The position numbers and the translations under genes are program-made. DNA of 38,678 nucleotides. Source: a virus. The DNA lies in IMG/VR virus record IMGVR_UViG_3300047318_000529, positions 1 through 38,678 of that record; one strand, written 5' to 3'. The number at the start of each line of letters is the position of its first letter. The first letter of the stretch is position 1. The notes below the pieces were generated by a model. That model was not told the DNA's origin, searched no databases, and saw only the letters and a list, made by a program, of their open reading frames with translations. Below, piece by piece: positions 3,004 to 35,527 of the stretch.

Positions 3004-4064
3004 TTTTTACCTAAAGGGATGTATCCTTGGGCTCTATATGCATCCATTTCTTTTTTTGGAATTGCGAATGGACTACCATCAGGAGACATCATCAAAATCT
3101 CTCCAGACTTCAATTTGGATCTAAAAATTGCGTCTCTATTTTCTTCGATTTTTGATAGAGAGCGCAACGTCTTAATCGCCTTTTGCTCGATTTCCTCGAT
3201 TTCTGGCCTAACTTCCTTCTTCACGACTTGCTCAAATCGGCTTGGAAGGTGTTTTTTCTCAGAGATATATTTATCCTCAAGTTCTCTAGTTTTCTCTATG
3301 AGTTTTCTGGAAATATCCTCTTTCATTTTCATACCGAGGAGGATTTTTTGATTAGAGATTGGATCTTGACCTGCCCTCGGGTAGGCATCTCTAAGCTGTT
3401 TTTCGATGAAAATATTTGGCCTTCCGCCCTTAATTGAACTCAGATCTCCGAGAAAATAGCTCTTGATCGCTGAATCGAGTTCAGTCCCAGCAGCACTCTT
3501 GAATCCAGGAAATCCCGTTGCCTCTGCTATTCTATCTTTGAACGCCGCCCATTTATCTGCATTGTGAAGGGCGTCTTCCATCATGGCTAGAGAGAATTCA
3601 GTGGTTGGCATGTCTTTTTCTATCTGATCAACTGAATCGAGGAAGGCTGTGTTCCTCTTCGCTGCATGCTCAATATATTCTTTCTGTGGAAGAAATTCTC
3701 TTTCCCTTTGCTCGCTAGCTCGTTTTTCTTGAAATTCAGCCCCTTTTATGATCGTATTAGCTAGATCATGTTGTCCCATTAAGGAAGCTTTAGCAGCATC
3801 TTCTAGAATATAATTAGGTTGTTGTTGCTGCATTCCTAATTCCGGAGCCATTTGCTGCTGAGTTTGCACAGCCAAATTTGGAGCATTCTGAGGTTGGCTT
3901 GTCATTCCGAAAAGATTAGGAAAAGCCTTTGCAATCTGCTGTTGCTTCTGCTTGTTCAGAATCATCTCAGCGATTGAAGGCATGGCCTGCGCTAATCCTT
4001 GCCCTGCGCCTTGTACAAGTCCACCTAAAGCGCCTCCACGTTCTTGTAAGATCGGTAATGTCAT
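3000..4064 (-). CDS. Putative DNA ejection / internal virion protein (second)
   Basis: 354 aa, overlapping both neighbours by ATGA. The N-terminus contains a glycine-rich hydrophobic patch (residues 9-27) and then a long glutamine-rich stretch (QQQQ runs around residues 40-85). The middle and C-terminal parts are helical, with a probable coiled coil near residues 240-310. Gln/Ala-rich, helical, low-complexity sequence is typical of podoviral ejection proteins. Specific role unknown. Confidence 0.6.
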   Translation of the reverse strand: MTLPILQERGGALGGLVQGAGQGLAQAMPSIAEMILNKQKQQQIAKAFPNLFGMTSQPQNAPNLAVQTQQQMAPELGMQQQQPNYILEDAAKASLMGQHDLANTIIKGAEFQEKRASEQREREFLPQKEYIEHAAKRNTAFLDSVDQIEKDMPTTEFSLAMMEDALHNADKWAAFKDRIAEATGFPGFKSAAGTELDSAIKSYFLGDLSSIKGGRPNIFIEKQLRDAYPRAGQDPISNQKILLGMKMKEDISRKLIEKTRELEDKYISEKKHLPSRFEQVVKKEVRPEIEEIEQKAIKTLRSLSKIEENRDAIFRSKLKSGEILMMSPDGSPFAIPKKEMDAYRAQGYIPLGKK

Positions 4065-4582
4065 AGAAGCCCCGCTAATTTAGTGCCGCCAAATATTCCT
4101 GCCGCTTGCGATCCAGCTCCGCCAAGCATTTGCATCAGATCTCTGAGCATGTTCTGCTTTTGATAAAGACCATATTGTCTATCAGGACTTGCCAACAGCG
4201 TGTTCCCCAAGCTTAAAACATCATGCATCGATTGTTGCATAAGATTCATTCGTTGGCTCTGAAGATTTTCAGCCAAATTCCCTCCCGCCGCGGCCAATGA
4301 GTTTTGCATTCCACTAGATCCGCTTATACCGCTTCCAGCATACCGAGAAGCAATTCCAGGAGCTATTTGCTGTTGAAATTGTCTTAGTGCAGGAGCTTCA
4401 AGTTGTTGGAACATTCCTTGATCGCCACTAGCCATAGAGAGAAGATTTTTGTATACATCCCCTGCTCCGCCCTGGAATTGCCCTCTAATCAAATCATATA
4501 TTTGAGATTGACCGGGCCCCATCGTTTGCATCGAAAATTGCCCAAAGCCTTTTGGAAGTTTAGAAACAGCAGGCATTGACAT
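4061..4582 (-). CDS. Putative ejection / internal virion protein (first)
   Basis: 173 aa from the ATG at 4582 (MSMPAVSKLPKGFG). The upstream in-frame codons to 4609 are excluded because AAGAGG lies 7 nt before 4582. It is rich in Gly, Gln, Met and Ser with motifs like GISGSSGMQNSLAAAGG, resembling small P22 gp7-type proteins that line or exit the portal. It is first of the three-gene ejection set. The plus-strand promoter at 4576-4606 overlaps its start codon, so the two transcription units meet head to head here. Confidence 0.6.
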   Translation of the reverse strand: MSMPAVSKLPKGFGQFSMQTMGPGQSQIYDLIRGQFQGGAGDVYKNLLSMASGDQGMFQQLEAPALRQFQQQIAPGIASRYAGSGISGSSGMQNSLAAAGGNLAENLQSQRMNLMQQSMHDVLSLGNTLLASPDRQYGLYQKQNMLRDLMQMLGGAGSQAAGIFGGTKLAGLL

Positions 4583-4606
4583 AAAAAAACCTCTTGATCT
4601 TATATT
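4576..4606 (+). promoter_or_regulatory. Sigma70-type promoter for array and RAMP-like gene
   Basis: A consensus -35 TTGACA lies at 4576-4581, and TTATAT/TATATT is at 4600-4606 (spacer 18-19 nt). Transcription would start near 4612 and run through the pentamer array (4662-4761) and terminator (4788-4814) before the gene at 4828. The promoter overlaps the start codon of the leftward ejection gene. The -35 is perfect; the spacer is slightly long. Confidence 0.55.
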
Positions 4607-4661
4607 CAAATAATCTTTCAGTCTGACGCAAAAAGCAAGCGTTATTTATCATGTTTATTCC

Positions 4662-4761
4662 CGCTTAGGCAAGCTCTGCTGTGCAACGGCTGGCATTGGC
4701 ATGCCTTGGTGTGGTATGCATTGCCTGGGCGTGCTACGGTTTGCTTTGCAATGGTATGGTG
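4662..4761 (+). repeat. Degenerate pentanucleotide array, 20 units of xGSNN
   Basis: From 4662 the sequence parses without a break into twenty 5-mers, each with G at position 2 and G or C at position 3: CGCTT, AGGCA, AGCTC, TGCTG, TGCAA, CGGCT, GGCAT, TGGCA, TGCCT, TGGTG and so on to TGGTG. Position 1 is T in 14 units; positions 4 and 5 are free. The composition is far richer in G and C than the flanks. It lies in the untranslated leader of the gene at 4828. I do not recognise it as a named element. It is not coding in any frame and not a CRISPR (no identical repeats, no spacers). Confidence 0.85.
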
Positions 4762-4787
4762 GCCCAATCGTTAGATTGATAAGGTCT

Positions 4788-4814
4788 GCCCATAGGTAAC
4801 TATGGGCTTTTTTT
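4788..4814 (+). terminator. Intrinsic terminator / attenuator in leader of 4828 gene
   Basis: Perfect 8-bp stem GCCCATAG / CTATGGGC with a GTAA loop (4788-4807), followed by seven T (4808-4814). It reads as a terminator only on the plus strand. The Shine-Dalgarno of the next gene begins immediately after the T tract, so transcripts from 4612 must read through it to express the gene. A second small hairpin (CAATC-GTTA-GATTG, 4765-4778) precedes it. The arrangement suggests either an attenuator or a separately terminated small RNA of about 200 nt carrying the array. Confidence 0.85.
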
Positions 4815-4827
4815 AAAGGAGAAAATG

Positions 4828-5439
4828 ATGGTAAAATATATAGGAGGAGAATCTCCTACTAATTCAGCAAAAAATTCTATTAAGATTTCAGAACCATATT
4901 CGGTGAATATAGAGATAACCGGATCTTCTAGTCTTATTTTTCATAGATGGCAGAATGAATATGTTGAAGAAAAATCTAAAGCTTCAAAAGGATCAAAAGC
5001 AAAAAAGACTGATGACATCGAAACTTTTGTTTATCGAGATAATGAAGGAAACATCTGTATTCCAGGAGAATATTTGAGGCAATCGATTATTCATGCTTCA
5101 AAGTTTCGACAAGATCCCAGAAGCCCCAGGAAATCTGCTATGGATCTTTTCAAAGCAGGAATAATCGTAGAAACCGAATTGGCAAGCCTTAGAACTAAAA
5201 AATGGGATTACGAGGATCGCAGAAGGGTTTTGGTTCAAAGAAATGCAATAACAAGAACGCGTCCAGCCTTTTCAAAGGGATGGAAGGCGAAATTTCAGAT
5301 TTTAGTCCTATTGCCTGAATATATAAGCTCTGATGAATTGCATGATGTAATCATAAATGCTGGAAAGTTAATAGGAATTGGTGATTTCAGGCCTACTTTT
5401 GGAAGATTTCAGATTACTAAATTTGATATATTATCCTAA
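4828..5439 (+). CDS. Conserved phage protein, RAMP/Cas7-like pattern (putative)
   Basis: 203 aa. ATG at 4828 is preferred to 4825 because AGGAG then has 6-nt spacing. An N-terminal strand, ITGSSSLIFHRW (about residues 31-42), is followed by a lysine-rich loop (KASKGSKAKKT), a central helix with RQSIIHASKF, and a C-terminal block with RTRPAF and GIGDFRPTFGRF. The glycine/arginine loop near the C-terminus and the SPLxxHR-like N-terminus recur in a widespread family of uncharacterised phage proteins and recall RAMP (Cas7-like) RNA-binding folds. That resemblance is by eye only. It is an isolated rightward gene inside the leftward structural arm, with its own promoter and terminator-bearing leader. 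It ends 4 nt into the convergent gene 5436-5939. Confidence 0.6.
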   Translation: MVKYIGGESPTNSAKNSIKISEPYSVNIEITGSSSLIFHRWQNEYVEEKSKASKGSKAKKTDDIETFVYRDNEGNICIPGEYLRQSIIHASKFRQDPRSPRKSAMDLFKAGIIVETELASLRTKKWDYEDRRRVLVQRNAITRTRPAFSKGWKAKFQILVLLPEYISSDELHDVIINAGKLIGIGDFRPTFGRFQITKFDILS

Positions 5440-5939
5440 ACATATTCGAAGACTACAATACCCAAATTTATTGAAGGAGGAGCGCCAGCTCCTTTTACAA
5501 CTATAATTTGCGTTGAAGTAACTTTAATTTGAATTTGATTATTAACGTTTACTAAATCTACATAAGGCAATGGCCACCATACTCCGCTTCCATCTTTAAA
5601 CATTCCGTATAGTCGCGTTCCTTGATTTATTTGCACGATATTATGAACCACCGTCAATACCGAATCGCTTACTTGAACTACAAGGCGATTACCATCTCTT
5701 TGTCTTGTCTGTGGAGGGGATGCATTAGGATCTGGAAACCATCTTTCTCCATTAGGAACAGAAGGGGCAGGAGCATTGCTTGGTGCTGCTTCTGGAGGAG
5801 TGTAAAGCTCAAATATTCCTATCGTTCTCTGATTTATTGCAGTATTTGACTGCGTGTGAAAGTTTACAAGCTGTTTTTCAAGATTATGTGGATCTGAACT
5901 AGGAAACTGCCTATAGACTGGGACAAATGGACTCGTCAT
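5436..5939 (-). CDS. Putative virion-associated (tail) protein
   Basis: 167 aa, starting within the stop of the large tail gene (ATGA). The N-terminal half is Pro/Ser-rich (TPPEAAPSNAPAPSVPNG, about residues 47-64), a likely flexible linker. The C-terminal half alternates V/I/N in short strands (VQVSDSVLTVVHNIVQI), consistent with a beta-rich domain. It lies between the large tail protein and the ejection genes. Probably a small structural component or adaptor; no family recognised. Confidence 0.55.
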   Translation of the reverse strand: MTSPFVPVYRQFPSSDPHNLEKQLVNFHTQSNTAINQRTIGIFELYTPPEAAPSNAPAPSVPNGERWFPDPNASPPQTRQRDGNRLVVQVSDSVLTVVHNIVQINQGTRLYGMFKDGSGVWWPLPYVDLVNVNNQIQIKVTSTQIIVVKGAGAPPSINLGIVVFEYV

Positions 5940-30548: not shown

Positions 30549-32273
30549 TTAGCAAATTAAATGTCCCGAGAACCAAGTATCAATGACTCCAGAAGCACCT
30601 AGAATGCCCGCAGTTTTTGTAGAACCTCCAACAGCCACAAAAACATAAGCTGTGTCTGAGGCAGCCATTGAAATAATACCACTAACATTCTCTCCTGTAC
30701 CTGAAGACGAAGCGCCAGCTACCGCATATCCTAAGCTCCTTCGTAAGGTTAATGATGTTGCAGCAATATCAATCTGAAAAGAAGACATATTCGCATTCAC
30801 ATTATTAAAAAATACCGAAGCCTCGAAGTGATATTTTCCTGCAACTGGAGCTGTAAAGATACCGGTTCCTGCATTATAGTTTGAGTTTTGATCGAATGAA
30901 ACACTGTCGAAAATAATTGTATATGGTGAACCATCGCCAGTAGCATTCGGTACGGTGGTACTTAAAGAAGCAAAGAAACAAGGTTGCGCTGTATTTGTCG
31001 CTCTATTCGACGCGTCTATTTTAGAAGTAGTAGATGTAACCAAAGAGGTTCCATCAAATTTGACTACGCCATTTGTTGTGCTAAATGAGCTTGCATTTGT
31101 TCCTCCTCCCACAATCGGAAGAACTCCAAAAGCCGGATTGCTTCCAGCTCCTCCAGAGACCAAGGCTTGGCCAGAGGTTCCAGTTCCAATCGATGTCAAG
31201 GATCCACTTGCATTGCCAACTTGAACCGCGTGATTCGTGGTCCCAGTCACATTGAAGTTAAGAGCATTTCCTCCAGCTGTAACAGTTAGGTTATTCCCAC
31301 TGTGGACTAGGATAACTCCGGCGACAGGAGTTGCACTCCCTGCGAAATCATCTGTAAAGGTCGTAACCGCTCCTCCACTTCCACCAGTAAGTGAAACGAA
31401 TCCATTCGCATCTACCGCAAAGTCTGTGTTCTTGAAGTGAGCAATTCCATTCTTAGTGGCATCTGATGCAACGACCGCTGAGGCTCTTTGGATTTGAACG
31501 GTATAAGTGTTTGCTGCGAGAGAGTTAGTTCTAATAGCATTCGCGATCGTTCCGGCTGCAGCTTGTGCGCCAGTAACGGTGATTAAACCAGCTCCTGTAG
31601 GAACGACAGGGTTGGTACCAGGAGGAGTACTTGCATCTACTCCCACCTGCGTTATGGCTCCAGAGCCTCCCGCAGTCTCAAGATTAATCGTTCCGGCACC
31701 ATTGGTGATCGTGATCGATCCGCCAGTGGAGGTAAGATTTGCAGCAACGGGATTACTTCCAGTTGAACCAATCGCAAGCTGACCATTTGTCAAAGGACCA
31801 ACTGTTGTAATTGGAGAGGTGCCTTGGCCTATCATGATCGCATGATTGGTAATAGTATTTACACCCGTTCCCCCATGAATAACAGGAACGATTCCAGTAA
31901 TAGCTAATGTAAGTTGACTAGCGCCTGTTTTCGTGCTAGTCATCACAGTTCCATCGCCAATGACATTGATATTGGAAGAACCATCCGGAACAACCTGTGC
32001 TCCTACCTGATCGGTAAGATTAGTTGCTGAACCACTACCCGGAGTGATGATAGACCAAATTGCATCTGCATGTTTGGTCATCGTATTCCAAGTGATTCGA
32101 AGCAGTTTATAGAATACGAATGTAACCGTATTTTCCCATTCAGTGCCGATTTCGTAGTTATTATCCTCGACAGTAGGAGCTCTATTCACGAACACCATGT
32201 TGACAGGAGCACGCTGGGCTACATTGAGAGGATTACTGCTTGGTGTTGTGTTGAAACCGCTAAAACTGCTCAT
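30549..32273 (-). CDS. Tail fibre with C1q-like C-terminal domain
   Basis: 574 aa with AAAGGGA before the ATG. The shaft is Gly/Thr/Ser/Ala-rich with repeated G-T-N-x-V and T-T-V-G units typical of trimeric beta-structured fibres. The last 130 residues read FDSVSFDQNSNYNAGTGIFTAPVAGKY...FEASVFF...GHLIC, the layout of a C1q/TNF-like jelly roll. Its nearest match in the genome is the next gene, whose C-terminus shares FDSxxxDQNSxxNxGTxxFTAPVxGKY. Likely receptor-binding. Confidence 0.75.
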   Translation of the reverse strand: MSSFSGFNTTPSSNPLNVAQRAPVNMVFVNRAPTVEDNNYEIGTEWENTVTFVFYKLLRITWNTMTKHADAIWSIITPGSGSATNLTDQVGAQVVPDGSSNINVIGDGTVMTSTKTGASQLTLAITGIVPVIHGGTGVNTITNHAIMIGQGTSPITTVGPLTNGQLAIGSTGSNPVAANLTSTGGSITITNGAGTINLETAGGSGAITQVGVDASTPPGTNPVVPTGAGLITVTGAQAAAGTIANAIRTNSLAANTYTVQIQRASAVVASDATKNGIAHFKNTDFAVDANGFVSLTGGSGGAVTTFTDDFAGSATPVAGVILVHSGNNLTVTAGGNALNFNVTGTTNHAVQVGNASGSLTSIGTGTSGQALVSGGAGSNPAFGVLPIVGGGTNASSFSTTNGVVKFDGTSLVTSTTSKIDASNRATNTAQPCFFASLSTTVPNATGDGSPYTIIFDSVSFDQNSNYNAGTGIFTAPVAGKYHFEASVFFNNVNANMSSFQIDIAATSLTLRRSLGYAVAGASSSGTGENVSGIISMAASDTAYVFVAVGGSTKTAGILGASGVIDTWFSGHLIC

Positions 32274-32285
32274 TTAAATCCCTTT

Positions 32286-34301
32286 TTAACAAAGTAACGT
32301 TCCTTGCCAACTTGTAGCCGTTGCTCCTCCGACTATATCAACAATCTTTGTCCCGCTCACAACAGTTATATTTACAGTAGCTGTATTAGTTGCTGTCATC
32401 GGTACAGTAATACACCATGTCAGATTTAATATTCCATTACCTGCCATAGTAAATGGATTAACTGTGAGTAATTGATACGTTCCACCAGTAGTTACTAGAT
32501 TCAAATATGCTTGAGTCATAGCAACACTAAAATCTGTAAAATATAGAAATCCAGTCATCAAATATTTTCCAGTAACTGGAGCAGTAAATGTTGAAGTTCC
32601 TGTATTAAAGTCGCTATTTTGATCATATAATTCTGAATCGAATGCTATCGTGTAGGTAGTTCCATCACCAGTGACGTTACTTGCAGTACCAGCTAAATAA
32701 GCAAAAAAAGCAGACTGTAAAGGATAATTTATTTCTCCCGTTGTGGCGACTCTCATTACATTAGTTGTTCCAAGAGTAGCATTCGAAGAAATCGCAAAAG
32801 CATCTGAATCGCTATTATCCAATCCGAAGGTCCACGCTTGTCCCCCGCTGATATTAGTCTCTATAAATGCATCTGATGCGGTAGATCCTGCTACTTGAGC
32901 TTGGTAAAATGCTCTAGCAGAGGCTGTATTTGAAGTATTTGATACAATCGCTGATAAATCGCCTCCAGAAACTGCAGCAGTAATAGATAGATTGCCTGTA
33001 TCATCTTCCGTAATGACGCCATTTTGAATGATCTTTCCAGTCGCTCCATCAAAACGAACAAGAGCATTGTCAGTTGAAGATCCTGGACCTGTCACATCTC
33101 CACTACTTGCAGCCTGAGACCCTAACTGTCCTGTAGAAGTATTGATTGTTACCACGTTTAGGTTTGCAACAGCAACGCTCGCTACACCAGTCATGCTTAC
33201 GCCACCAGTAGGAGCCTGAATTACTGTAGTTGCAGAAGCTGTAGTAGAGCCAACTGTAGTTGCATGAGCGTTCGCAGAGGTTCCAACGTTACAGCCACCA
33301 GTGCCACAAGCGATAGTAGTTGTGCTGGTAGTTGTTGTAGAACCTAAAGTAGTAGTATGGGCATTCGCTGAAGCTCCGACGCTACATCCACCCGTCCCAC
33401 ATTCAATCGTGGTAACAGATGTTGTATTAGTTGATCCCATGGATAATGTTTTTACCGCGCCACCTTGAGCAATTGCGACTGTAGTTGCGGCAGAATCCCC
33501 ACTAATCGTCAACGCACCTGTGCCAGAATTTATTGTCAGTGCGCCGTTGGTCGATGTGACATTTAATGCTCCACTTCCACTTTGGACAGTAGTTGCACTA
33601 GATGAGTTCGTCGATCCTAGGAATGTTGATTTGACCCCACCTCCCGTTCCAATATTGAGAGTGGTGGCTGTAGCATCTGTGCTTATAGAAATCGTTCCAG
33701 TCCCAGTCGTAAGGCCAAAGGTACCGTTGCTAGAGGTAGCCACAGTAATGCCGCCTGAGCCCGATTGAATGCCCGTGGTAGCCGTTGTGGTGGTAGAGCC
33801 TAATGTGGTTGTATGAGCTGTAGCGTTCGTGCCTATATTAAGAGCTCCTGTTCCATCAGAAACTACAGTTAATGTTCCATTGGAGTTCGTGGCAGAAATC
33901 GTATTGGAATCTAGTCGGATGTTATCCAACTGGGCCGTGATATTCGTAGTTGCAATCGTAGGAGCTGTGACAAAGAGTCCATAGCCTGTAGTTACTGCGC
34001 CTGCTCCAGAGAAAGTTCCACTCGCGATGTACAAACCATAGCCATTAGAAATTGTCACTCCACCCGGAGGAGCCATTGTAGGATATAGGCCTATAGACGC
34101 TGCGTTCGTTATGTTCGATGATGGGGCAAAAGAGGCATCAACGAAGATGCCATCTGCATCAGAGCCAGTAGAAACATTCGATCCAGTCACCCATAAGCCG
34201 ATGCGATTCGGAAGATTCACATAGAGGGATGCTGTCGTAGCAGAAGCACCCACTCCGAAGGCCGCTAGGCTATAATTATTGAGTGTATTTTGCGAAGCCA
34301 T
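32286..34301 (-). CDS. Tail fibre with Thr-rich shaft and C1q-like tip
   Basis: 671 aa from the ATG at 34301 (GGTGG upstream), which overlaps the previous stop as TGATG. The shaft holds many repeats of the form TTLGSTTTTATTxIxSGxGG and AHTTTxGSTT, about 25-35 residues each. The C-terminal 140 residues form a second C1q-like domain (DQNSDFNTGTSTFTAPVTGKY, ending WQGTLLC). The repeats suggest a trimeric beta-helix. Paralogue of 30549-32273. Confidence 0.75.
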   Translation of the reverse strand: MASQNTLNNYSLAAFGVGASATTASLYVNLPNRIGLWVTGSNVSTGSDADGIFVDASFAPSSNITNAASIGLYPTMAPPGGVTISNGYGLYIASGTFSGAGAVTTGYGLFVTAPTIATTNITAQLDNIRLDSNTISATNSNGTLTVVSDGTGALNIGTNATAHTTTLGSTTTTATTGIQSGSGGITVATSSNGTFGLTTGTGTISISTDATATTLNIGTGGGVKSTFLGSTNSSSATTVQSGSGALNVTSTNGALTINSGTGALTISGDSAATTVAIAQGGAVKTLSMGSTNTTSVTTIECGTGGCSVGASANAHTTTLGSTTTTSTTTIACGTGGCNVGTSANAHATTVGSTTASATTVIQAPTGGVSMTGVASVAVANLNVVTINTSTGQLGSQAASSGDVTGPGSSTDNALVRFDGATGKIIQNGVITEDDTGNLSITAAVSGGDLSAIVSNTSNTASARAFYQAQVAGSTASDAFIETNISGGQAWTFGLDNSDSDAFAISSNATLGTTNVMRVATTGEINYPLQSAFFAYLAGTASNVTGDGTTYTIAFDSELYDQNSDFNTGTSTFTAPVTGKYLMTGFLYFTDFSVAMTQAYLNLVTTGGTYQLLTVNPFTMAGNGILNLTWCITVPMTATNTATVNITVVSGTKIVDIVGGATATSWQGTLLC

Positions 34302-35527
34302 CAAACCACCGTTATATTCCCTGATTTTATCGCGCAGCACCAGCGTGCATTCGCTGTCTCACAGACTAACTCTACCCAATCTCCTACAGCAGTTGAAGCT
34401 AAAGATCCTCCAACTCCGAGAGTAGTCTGCTGGTTTCCGATTCTGATTCTTGTAGCAGCATTTGGTTGAGTGATCGTCCAGGAAGTAGATCCATCAAGAA
34501 CCACTTCGATTGTATCTCCTACAGCTGACACTGCTGGGAGAGCGAGTGATAAAGCGCCTCCAGTAGTACAAAAATATCCATTGCTGATTGCTAAAGTCTG
34601 GCTTGCACCAATGACTTGCCAGTTAATGCCACTCCCTACAGCTGCTATAGTGATGGAATTAGATCCATTCGAAATGGAAATACCCGCTCCAGCAGTAAGA
34701 GTCGCTGCGGCTGGGACACCTGCTGTAGATCCGATGATAAGCTGTCCATCAGTAGCCAAAGCAGTTAAGACTGGGATGCCAGTAGCTCCGGTAGTGAGAA
34801 CTGCTCGGTTAGCTGTAGCAAGTCCAGTGATTGTGTTGTTGGCTGAGGAATAAAGGATCTGATTGATCGTGGTGGTTGCAGGATAAGTTGCAGTCGTGTA
34901 GATGTTATTCGTTCCATCTGATCGAAGAATAACCCCCGCAGAACCACTTGCGCTTGGATAGGTTGGAATAGACCACGTTGGATCTGCTCCGGTATTGGTC
35001 TGAAGCACTTGGCCTGTTGTGCCCGATCCTAACTGTGTTAGCGTGGCTGTTCCTGCGCCGATTTGGAGAGCATGGTTAGTAAGGCCAGTAAGTTGCACCG
35101 TTTCAGTATTCAAAGAGCCGACAATTGTGATACTTCCAGTGCCAAGCAGGTTAAAATTGCCCGCGCCGTCGGGAACTTCCGCTCCTCCAGAATTCCCAGT
35201 AATCGTGATAATCGCACCAGAAGATGAAACAGATTTAAATGATGGATCCGCCGCAGGTCCATTACTGGTCAGAACAAATCCAGCAGTTCCAGGAGCAACT
35301 TTGGTGATCGTATCAGTTCCAGCGCCAATAAGCACACTGTGATTAGTAAGACCTGTTAACTGAGTTGTAAGAGTAGAAATTCCGGGATTACCAACAACAG
35401 TGATACTCCCAGAACCGATGGTGTTAATATTGTTGAGCGTGGGCGGGACTGGGCCCCCGGAATTGCCAGTCAGAGTAGTGACAAACCCGCTACCGCCACC
35501 TGGTAAAAAGGCACCTGCCTGGCTCAC
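34301..35527 (-). CDS. Tail fibre protein, repeat-rich
   Basis: 408 aa with a GTG start at 35527 (AAGGAAGG upstream). Repeats of the form LTGLTNHSVLIGAGTDTITKV and NHALQIGAGTATLTQLG, plus ITGNSGG near GSITVVG/GSITIVG, give a regular beta shaft. The C-terminal part (SNGYFCTTGGALSLALPAVSAVGDTIEVVLDGSTSWTI) differs from the C1q tips of the other two fibres. Confidence 0.7.
   Translation of the reverse strand: MSQAGAFLPGGGSGFVTTLTGNSGGPVPPTLNNINTIGSGSITVVGNPGISTLTTQLTGLTNHSVLIGAGTDTITKVAPGTAGFVLTSNGPAADPSFKSVSSSGAIITITGNSGGAEVPDGAGNFNLLGTGSITIVGSLNTETVQLTGLTNHALQIGAGTATLTQLGSGTTGQVLQTNTGADPTWSIPTYPSASGSAGVILRSDGTNNIYTTATYPATTTINQILYSSANNTITGLATANRAVLTTGATGIPVLTALATDGQLIIGSTAGVPAAATLTAGAGISISNGSNSITIAAVGSGINWQVIGASQTLAISNGYFCTTGGALSLALPAVSAVGDTIEVVLDGSTSWTITQPNAATRIRIGNQQTTLGVGGSLASTAVGDWVELVCETANARWCCAIKSGNITVV

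What the first reader, a model, noticed from the sequence alone, without database searches (positions are those of the whole stretch)
4576..5439. Pentamer array, terminator and RAMP-like gene: a candidate undescribed RNA system
Seen: a consensus TTGACA promoter, twenty unbroken xGSNN pentamers (4662-4761), a small hairpin, an 8-bp intrinsic terminator with T7, then directly the ribosome site of a 203-aa gene with GIGDFRPTFGRF and SLIFHRW. The unit is a self-contained rightward island in the leftward structural arm. Inference: the gene product may be a RAMP/Cas7-like protein that polymerises along RNA or ssDNA with a short regular footprint, and the 5-nt periodic array may be its binding track and autoregulatory leader. 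Alternatively the array is released as a terminated RNA of about 200 nt.
Basis: partly seen in the sequence, partly recalled or inferred. Interest (0 to 1): 0.85.

Follow-up and report, generated by a model that had tools for sequence, protein, structure and literature searches.

The report
A phage RNA-guided VIPR cassette
This phage carries a tiny RNA-guided DNA-recognition cassette, one Cas7-like protein plus one guide RNA built of 5-letter repeats, which belongs to the VIPR systems first reported in April 2026 and whose guide appears to be aimed at a structural gene of rival phages.

Summary
In detail: 20 of 20 in-phase GS-NN pentamers (4663-4762), a structured tail, an intrinsic terminator and a RAMP-like gene (4825-5439). 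'Undescribed' does not hold: it is a VIPR system (preprint PMC13142463). A profile of 50 relatives hits only one solved chain, 'SUSP1 Vipr protein' (36pp, E 5e-12); the AlphaFold model matches Csm3/Cas7; and 37 of 47 non-redundant relatives have a sense-strand array beside the gene (0.25 expected). So the array is the variable part of a guide RNA (vrRNA), not an autoregulatory track. Sequence tests support the published 1-nt-skip code in this clade: 30 near-perfect array-target pairs with skip 1, against 13, 1 and 9 with skips 0, 2 and 3. Decoded with the skip base as wobble, the window guide spells a peptide of the adjacent virion gene, best in a related phage that lacks vipr (0 of 1000 permutations); the closest relative's guide hits the other flanking gene there. 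This member is unusual: 11 of 20 units are GC instead of GG (about 10% elsewhere), 20 units, no vap gene, probable Chlamydiota host. Expression, RNA binding and repression are untested, and no perfect target was found.

The parts
4623..4652 (+). candidate promoter CTGACG-N18-TATCAT; would start the RNA near 4659
   Evidence: consensus scan, 9 of 12, not above shuffles; TTGACA at 4576-4581 is an alternative -35 without a well-spaced -10
4663..4762 (+). vrRNA variable region: 20 GSHNN pentamers (9 GG, 11 GC)
   Evidence: 20/20 in phase, longest chance run 7 in 300 shuffles; decodes with 1-nt skip
4763..4787 (+). vrRNA 3' tail, small hairpin CAAUC-GUUA-GAUUG and AAGGUC
   Evidence: z -3.7 to -4.2; conserved with stem-preserving changes in L009
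4788..4814 (+). intrinsic terminator, 8-bp stem plus T7
   Evidence: same in L009
4817..4821 (+). AGGAG ribosome-binding site
   Evidence: sequence
4825..5439 (+). vipr gene: single-domain RAMP with glycine loop GIGDFRPTFGRF (start 4825 or 4828)
   Evidence: phrog_4652; 36pp SUSP1 Vipr E 4.8e-12; fold matches Csm3/Cas7
5436..5939 (-). flanking late gene; its homologues in relatives are the decoded target of the window guide
5608..5667 (+). own copy of the decoded target site, 9 of 20 units matched (10 of 20 in the vipr-less relative)
4061..4609 (-). other flanking late gene (likely start near 4582); its homologue is the decoded target of L009's first guide

Best explanation
The unit is a VIPR cassette on the opposite strand within the late operon of a P22-portal-type phage, probably of Chlamydiota. 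A short RNA is transcribed from just upstream of the array to the terminator. Its pentamers are bound by Vipr, a single-domain RAMP that should assemble along it, about one subunit per unit. The two variable bases of each unit pair with DNA, skipping one target base per unit, and the skipped base falls on the codon wobble position. The guide is aimed at a homologue of the neighbouring virion gene (5436-5939) in rival related phages, and the bound complex blocks transcription there. Shown here by sequence: family membership, fold, association of array and gene, tail, decodability with skip 1, target gene family. Inferred from the preprint: RNA release, ribonucleoprotein assembly, DNA binding, repression. 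Inferred only: that rival phages are the functional target.
For: Profile match to solved SUSP1 Vipr, E 4.8e-12. AlphaFold model (pLDDT 90) matches Csm3/Cas7. Arrays beside 37 of 47 non-redundant relatives, 0.25 expected; clade consensus GGY-NN. Tail and terminator shared with L009. Skip-1 excess, 30 pairs against 13, 1 and 9, and 8 hits for permuted guides against 70. Window guide decodes to the same virion-gene site in three related phages, 0-2 of 1000 permutations. L009's guide decodes to the other flanking gene, 14 of 20 units. Own copies match less well than rivals' in five of five arrays. Preprint biochemistry for SUSP1 and P. fulva.
Against: No expression, binding or repression data for this clade. 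No perfect target found; best 10 of 20 units, and at DNA level alone the own-site match is not significant. Eleven of 20 units are GC, four have A in third place, away from GGY. No vap gene. Promoter weak. Host inferred only.
Confidence: 0.9

Rival explanations
1. It is a VIPR system, but the guide serves self-regulation of the phage's own late operon (own site 5608-5667) rather than attack on rivals.
For: The best decoded site in the window is its own neighbouring gene (score 8.6, 2 of 1000 permutations).
Against: The own copy matches less well than a rival copy in five of five arrays. The preprint's assigned natural targets are satellites, prophages and other VIPR systems.
Confidence: 0.08
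2. One reading: the array is a regular binding track and autoregulatory leader for the RAMP protein, with no sequence-specific target.
For: The array lies directly upstream of the gene with a terminator between.
Against: In relatives arrays also lie downstream of the gene; the NN bases are near-uniform but decode to specific genes with skip 1.
Confidence: 0.03
3. A decaying VIPR: the GC units are damage and the cassette no longer works.
For: GC in 11 of 20 units against 10% in the clade.
Against: Every non-GG unit is GC, none GA or GT, which random decay would not give; the gene is intact; GC units match the decoded target as well as GG units do (from the alignments).
Confidence: 0.05

Closest known systems
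VIPR systems (Viral Interference Programmable Repeat), type II SUSP1 and P. fulva (PMC13142463; PDB 36pp)
   Same: Phage-encoded about 20-kDa RAMP related to SUSP1 Vipr; guide of in-phase pentamers with two variable bases; structured 3' tail; 1-nt-skip decoding with wobble skip; targets in competing elements.
   Different: Deep separate clade; GSH instead of GGY; 20 units against 9-16; one guide upstream with its own terminator; no vap; probable Chlamydiota host. The VIPR type could not be assigned because the supplement was not readable.
Class 1 CRISPR-Cas Cas7/Csm3
   Same: Fold and presumed assembly along a guide RNA.
   Different: No CRISPR repeats or other cas genes; gapped code; single small protein.
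PHROG family phrog_4652 (unknown function)
   Same: The window protein is a member (E 2e-21).
   Different: The family is unannotated; this links it to Vipr.

Membership tests
VIPR | RAMP protein of the Vipr lineage | tested here: met
   36pp SUSP1 Vipr E 4.8e-12, the only PDB hit; Csm3/Cas7 fold
VIPR | glycine loop and thumb that bind guide RNA | tested here: inconclusive
   glycine loop motif conserved (G183, D186, R188, P189, G192, R193 invariant in 50); thumb not examined
VIPR | guide RNA of alternating GGY/NN motifs or a related consensus | tested here: met
   20 of 20 GS-NN; clade consensus GGY-NN; the window deviates with GC units
VIPR | structured invariant 3' tail after the repeats | tested here: met
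   comparison with one relative only; pseudoknot not tested
VIPR | non-contiguous DNA recognition with 1-nt skip | tested here: met
   sequence test only; no biochemistry
VIPR | encoded mainly by phages or prophages | tested here: met
   portal, terminase, tail genes in the window
VIPR | vap accessory gene beside vipr (described as typical, not as defining) | tested here: not met
   no + strand gene follows in the window; no gene shared by more than a few of 47 relatives' neighbourhoods
VIPR | vrRNA expressed and co-purifying with Vipr | not testable with these tools
   needs small-RNA sequencing and pull-down
Class 1 CRISPR-Cas | Cas7-type RAMP fold | tested here: met
Class 1 CRISPR-Cas | CRISPR repeat-spacer array with further cas genes | tested here: not met
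   no such array among tandem repeats; neighbouring genes are late phage genes

The most novel reading that the evidence does not exclude
This VIPR clade works as a locus-competition device: its guides are aimed at the genes that flank the cassette's own insertion site in rival phages lacking the cassette, while the carrier's own copies have diverged out of range. It would be homing-like exclusion by silencing instead of cutting. Support: both guides tested against the whole cassette-free 35-kb relative G195 hit its two flanking genes. L027, L042 and L046 show the same pattern, but there only about 4-kb flanks were searched, which biases towards flanking hits. L009's second guide hits a different gene. 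In addition, GC can replace GG as the fixed motif.
Probability: 0.25. Interest if true: 0.78.

Novelty: new member of a known kind. Interest (0 to 1): 0.55.

Why it matters
It places VIPR, a months-old proposed ancestor of class 1 CRISPR, in phages linked to Chlamydiota, Phycisphaerae and other hosts. It gives independent sequence support for the gapped 1-nt-skip code in a clade far from the tested ones, and names likely natural targets. It shows that the fixed GG can be GC in over half the units of one guide, which bears on how Vipr recognises its RNA. The flanking-gene targets make a concrete, testable idea about what the system is for.

Tried and rejected
Rfam: no match. Pfam: no match for the protein. 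Exact 1-nt-skip scans of IMG/VR with four stretches of the guide gave only chance hits, with at most 12 of 20 units over the whole guide. 192 Chlamydiia genomes: no target within 3 mismatches. DNA-level self-match at 5608: not above permutations; the codon-level test is what separates it. Phage contigs in Chlamydiia genomes gave no decoded target for the window guide. The array itself as a folded RNA: not better than shuffles. Whether the S base pairs with the skipped target base: looked at by eye, no convincing pattern. Pfam gave no family for the LVDEATGYQ protein hit by L009's second guide, so my recollection of it as a P63C-type motif is unconfirmed.

Full report
What is there. At 4663-4762 the + strand holds twenty unbroken pentamers that begin with G then G or C (9 GG, 11 GC). 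The longest chance run in 300 shuffles of the whole window is 7, and the longest on the other strand is 4. A small hairpin and an 8-bp terminator with T7 follow, then AGGAG and a 203/204-aa gene (4825-5439). The unit runs rightward between two leftward late genes. The TTGACA at 4576 overlaps the first codons of the left gene and has no well-spaced -10. A weaker site at 4623-4652 would start the RNA right at the array; both are only consensus matches.

What the protein is. It belongs to phrog_4652. Relatives occur in Felix O1-like phages including SUSP1, in Pseudomonas and Gordonia phages, and in about 100 closer loci from viral contigs and bacterial genomes. A profile of 50 of them finds one solved chain, SUSP1 Vipr (36pp), at E 4.8e-12. 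The model (pLDDT 90) matches class 1 CRISPR backbone subunits, mostly Csm3/Cas7, in all 50 PDB hits listed. SUSP1 is the model phage of the VIPR preprint PMC13142463. Its locus (L113) has the gene order described there.

Arrays go with the gene. In 47 non-redundant relatives, 37 have a sense-strand array within 700 bases upstream or 900 downstream, against 0.25 expected from shuffles; the antisense count is 4. Of the other ten, about six have shorter or altered arrays above shuffles (L020, L048, L057, L065, L101, L104). One of them, L057, uses xGYNN (25 GY units in a stretch of 27). Over 72 arrays the consensus is G, G 90%, Y 92%, N, N. The window's array is the outlier: 55% GC against 10%, and four units with A in third place.

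The tail. The closest relative, L009 (77% identity), has a 43-unit stretch (39 of its units GG or GC) and the same tail and terminator. The small hairpin stem differs by two pair changes that keep pairing (CAAUC/GAUUG against CAAGA/UCUUG; read from two sequences only, and the thermodynamic fold of the L009 tail prefers another pairing). The tail is more stable than shuffles, the array is not, as expected for a guide with an open reading region.

Does the code hold here? The preprint reports that NN pairs with DNA with one target base skipped per unit, and that the skip base mostly falls on codon wobble positions. I tested this with 229 arrays against all sequence held (about 1.2 Mb, arrays masked). 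Stretches of nine units with at least eight matches: 70 hits in 30 array-target pairs for skip 1; 13 pairs for skip 0; 1 for skip 2; 9 for skip 3; permuted guides with skip 1 gave 8 hits. Several pairs share homologous targets, so they are not independent. In the pairs inspected the skip base was mostly at codon position 3 of the longest open frame; three of eleven were not (L046 to L027, L042 to L090, L075), and in high-GC targets the longest frame may not be the gene.

The window's target. Reading the reverse complement of each NN plus a wobble base gives a peptide pattern. In the six-frame window its best match is the neighbouring gene 5436-5939, DSVLTVVHNIVQINQGTRLY (8.6; 2 of 1000 permutations; second best 5.6). 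In G195, a related phage with a 69% identical homologue and no vipr, the same site is best in the whole 35-kb contig, DSVLTVIHNITVINLVTRLY (10.2; 0 of 1000). It is also best in the L009 phage (0 of 1000). These are one homologous site, so one result. At plain DNA level the own-site match alone is not significant, and the best natural copy matches 10 of 20 units, so the true target strain is probably not in the collections.

Replication. L009's guide, units 1-20, hits the start of the other flanking gene in G195: 14 of 20 units, where skips 0 and 2 never exceed 9 in anything held. Its units 28-36 match LVDEATGYQ, nine of nine, in a related phage contig of a Chlamydiia genome. In five arrays with a flanking-gene target, the phage's own copy matches less well than a rival's: 9 against 12, 9 against 11, 7 against 9, 10 against 14, 9 against 10. 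That fits attack on rivals rather than self-control.

Cassette and host. In G195 the two flanking homologues lie about 80 bases apart (L167 14183-14668 and 14743 onward) with no vipr, so the window's array and gene look like an insertion in the late operon. The window is a P22-portal phage with RecT and a YqaJ exonuclease. Its terminase is 39-51% identical to that of phage-sized contigs in three Chlamydiia genomes, and a Chlamydiia genome holds a close partial vipr with an array (L108), so the host is probably a Chlamydiota bacterium (inference).

Verdict. A VIPR system, with high confidence, in a clade deeply split from the SUSP1 type (100/100), without a conserved vap. The preprint describes vap as typical, and names six vap genes for types II to VII, so a type without one may exist; I could not read the supplement to check. 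It is a new member of a known kind with an unusual GS motif. RNA production, RNA binding and silencing are inferred from the preprint and untested here.

Noticed in passing
L042:3241-3315, L046:3220-3294: Arrays just upstream of the phage's own DUF669 gene decode to the DUF669 gene of related loci (11/15 and 12/15 units) better than to their own (9/15).
   Followed up: partly
L057, upstream of vipr: Array with consensus xGYNN (25 GY units in a stretch of 27): the first G has become variable.
   Followed up: partly
L009 units 28-36 (about 3858-3902) and L129 minus strand: Second L009 guide matches LVDEATGYQ, 9 of 9 units, in a phage contig of a Chlamydiia genome, although three of these units are not GG or GC.
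   Followed up: partly
L108:4001-4409: Chlamydiia genome with a vipr that matches only over its first half, followed directly by an array and terminator.
   Followed up: no
L101, L103: Two vipr copies with the same match values on one contig of the cyanobacterium Stenomitos rutilans, 100 kb apart.
   Followed up: no
L078-L088: Arrays followed by repeated structured tails of the form GAGCTGCTATGCAGCG...GATGCGTAAGCATC with varying stems.
   Followed up: no
window 30549-32273 and 34301-35527, minus strand: Tail-fibre-like proteins with a C1q domain (E 3e-9) and a weak Pgp3_N match (E 0.008, below cut-off), the latter a Chlamydia plasmid protein domain.
   Followed up: no
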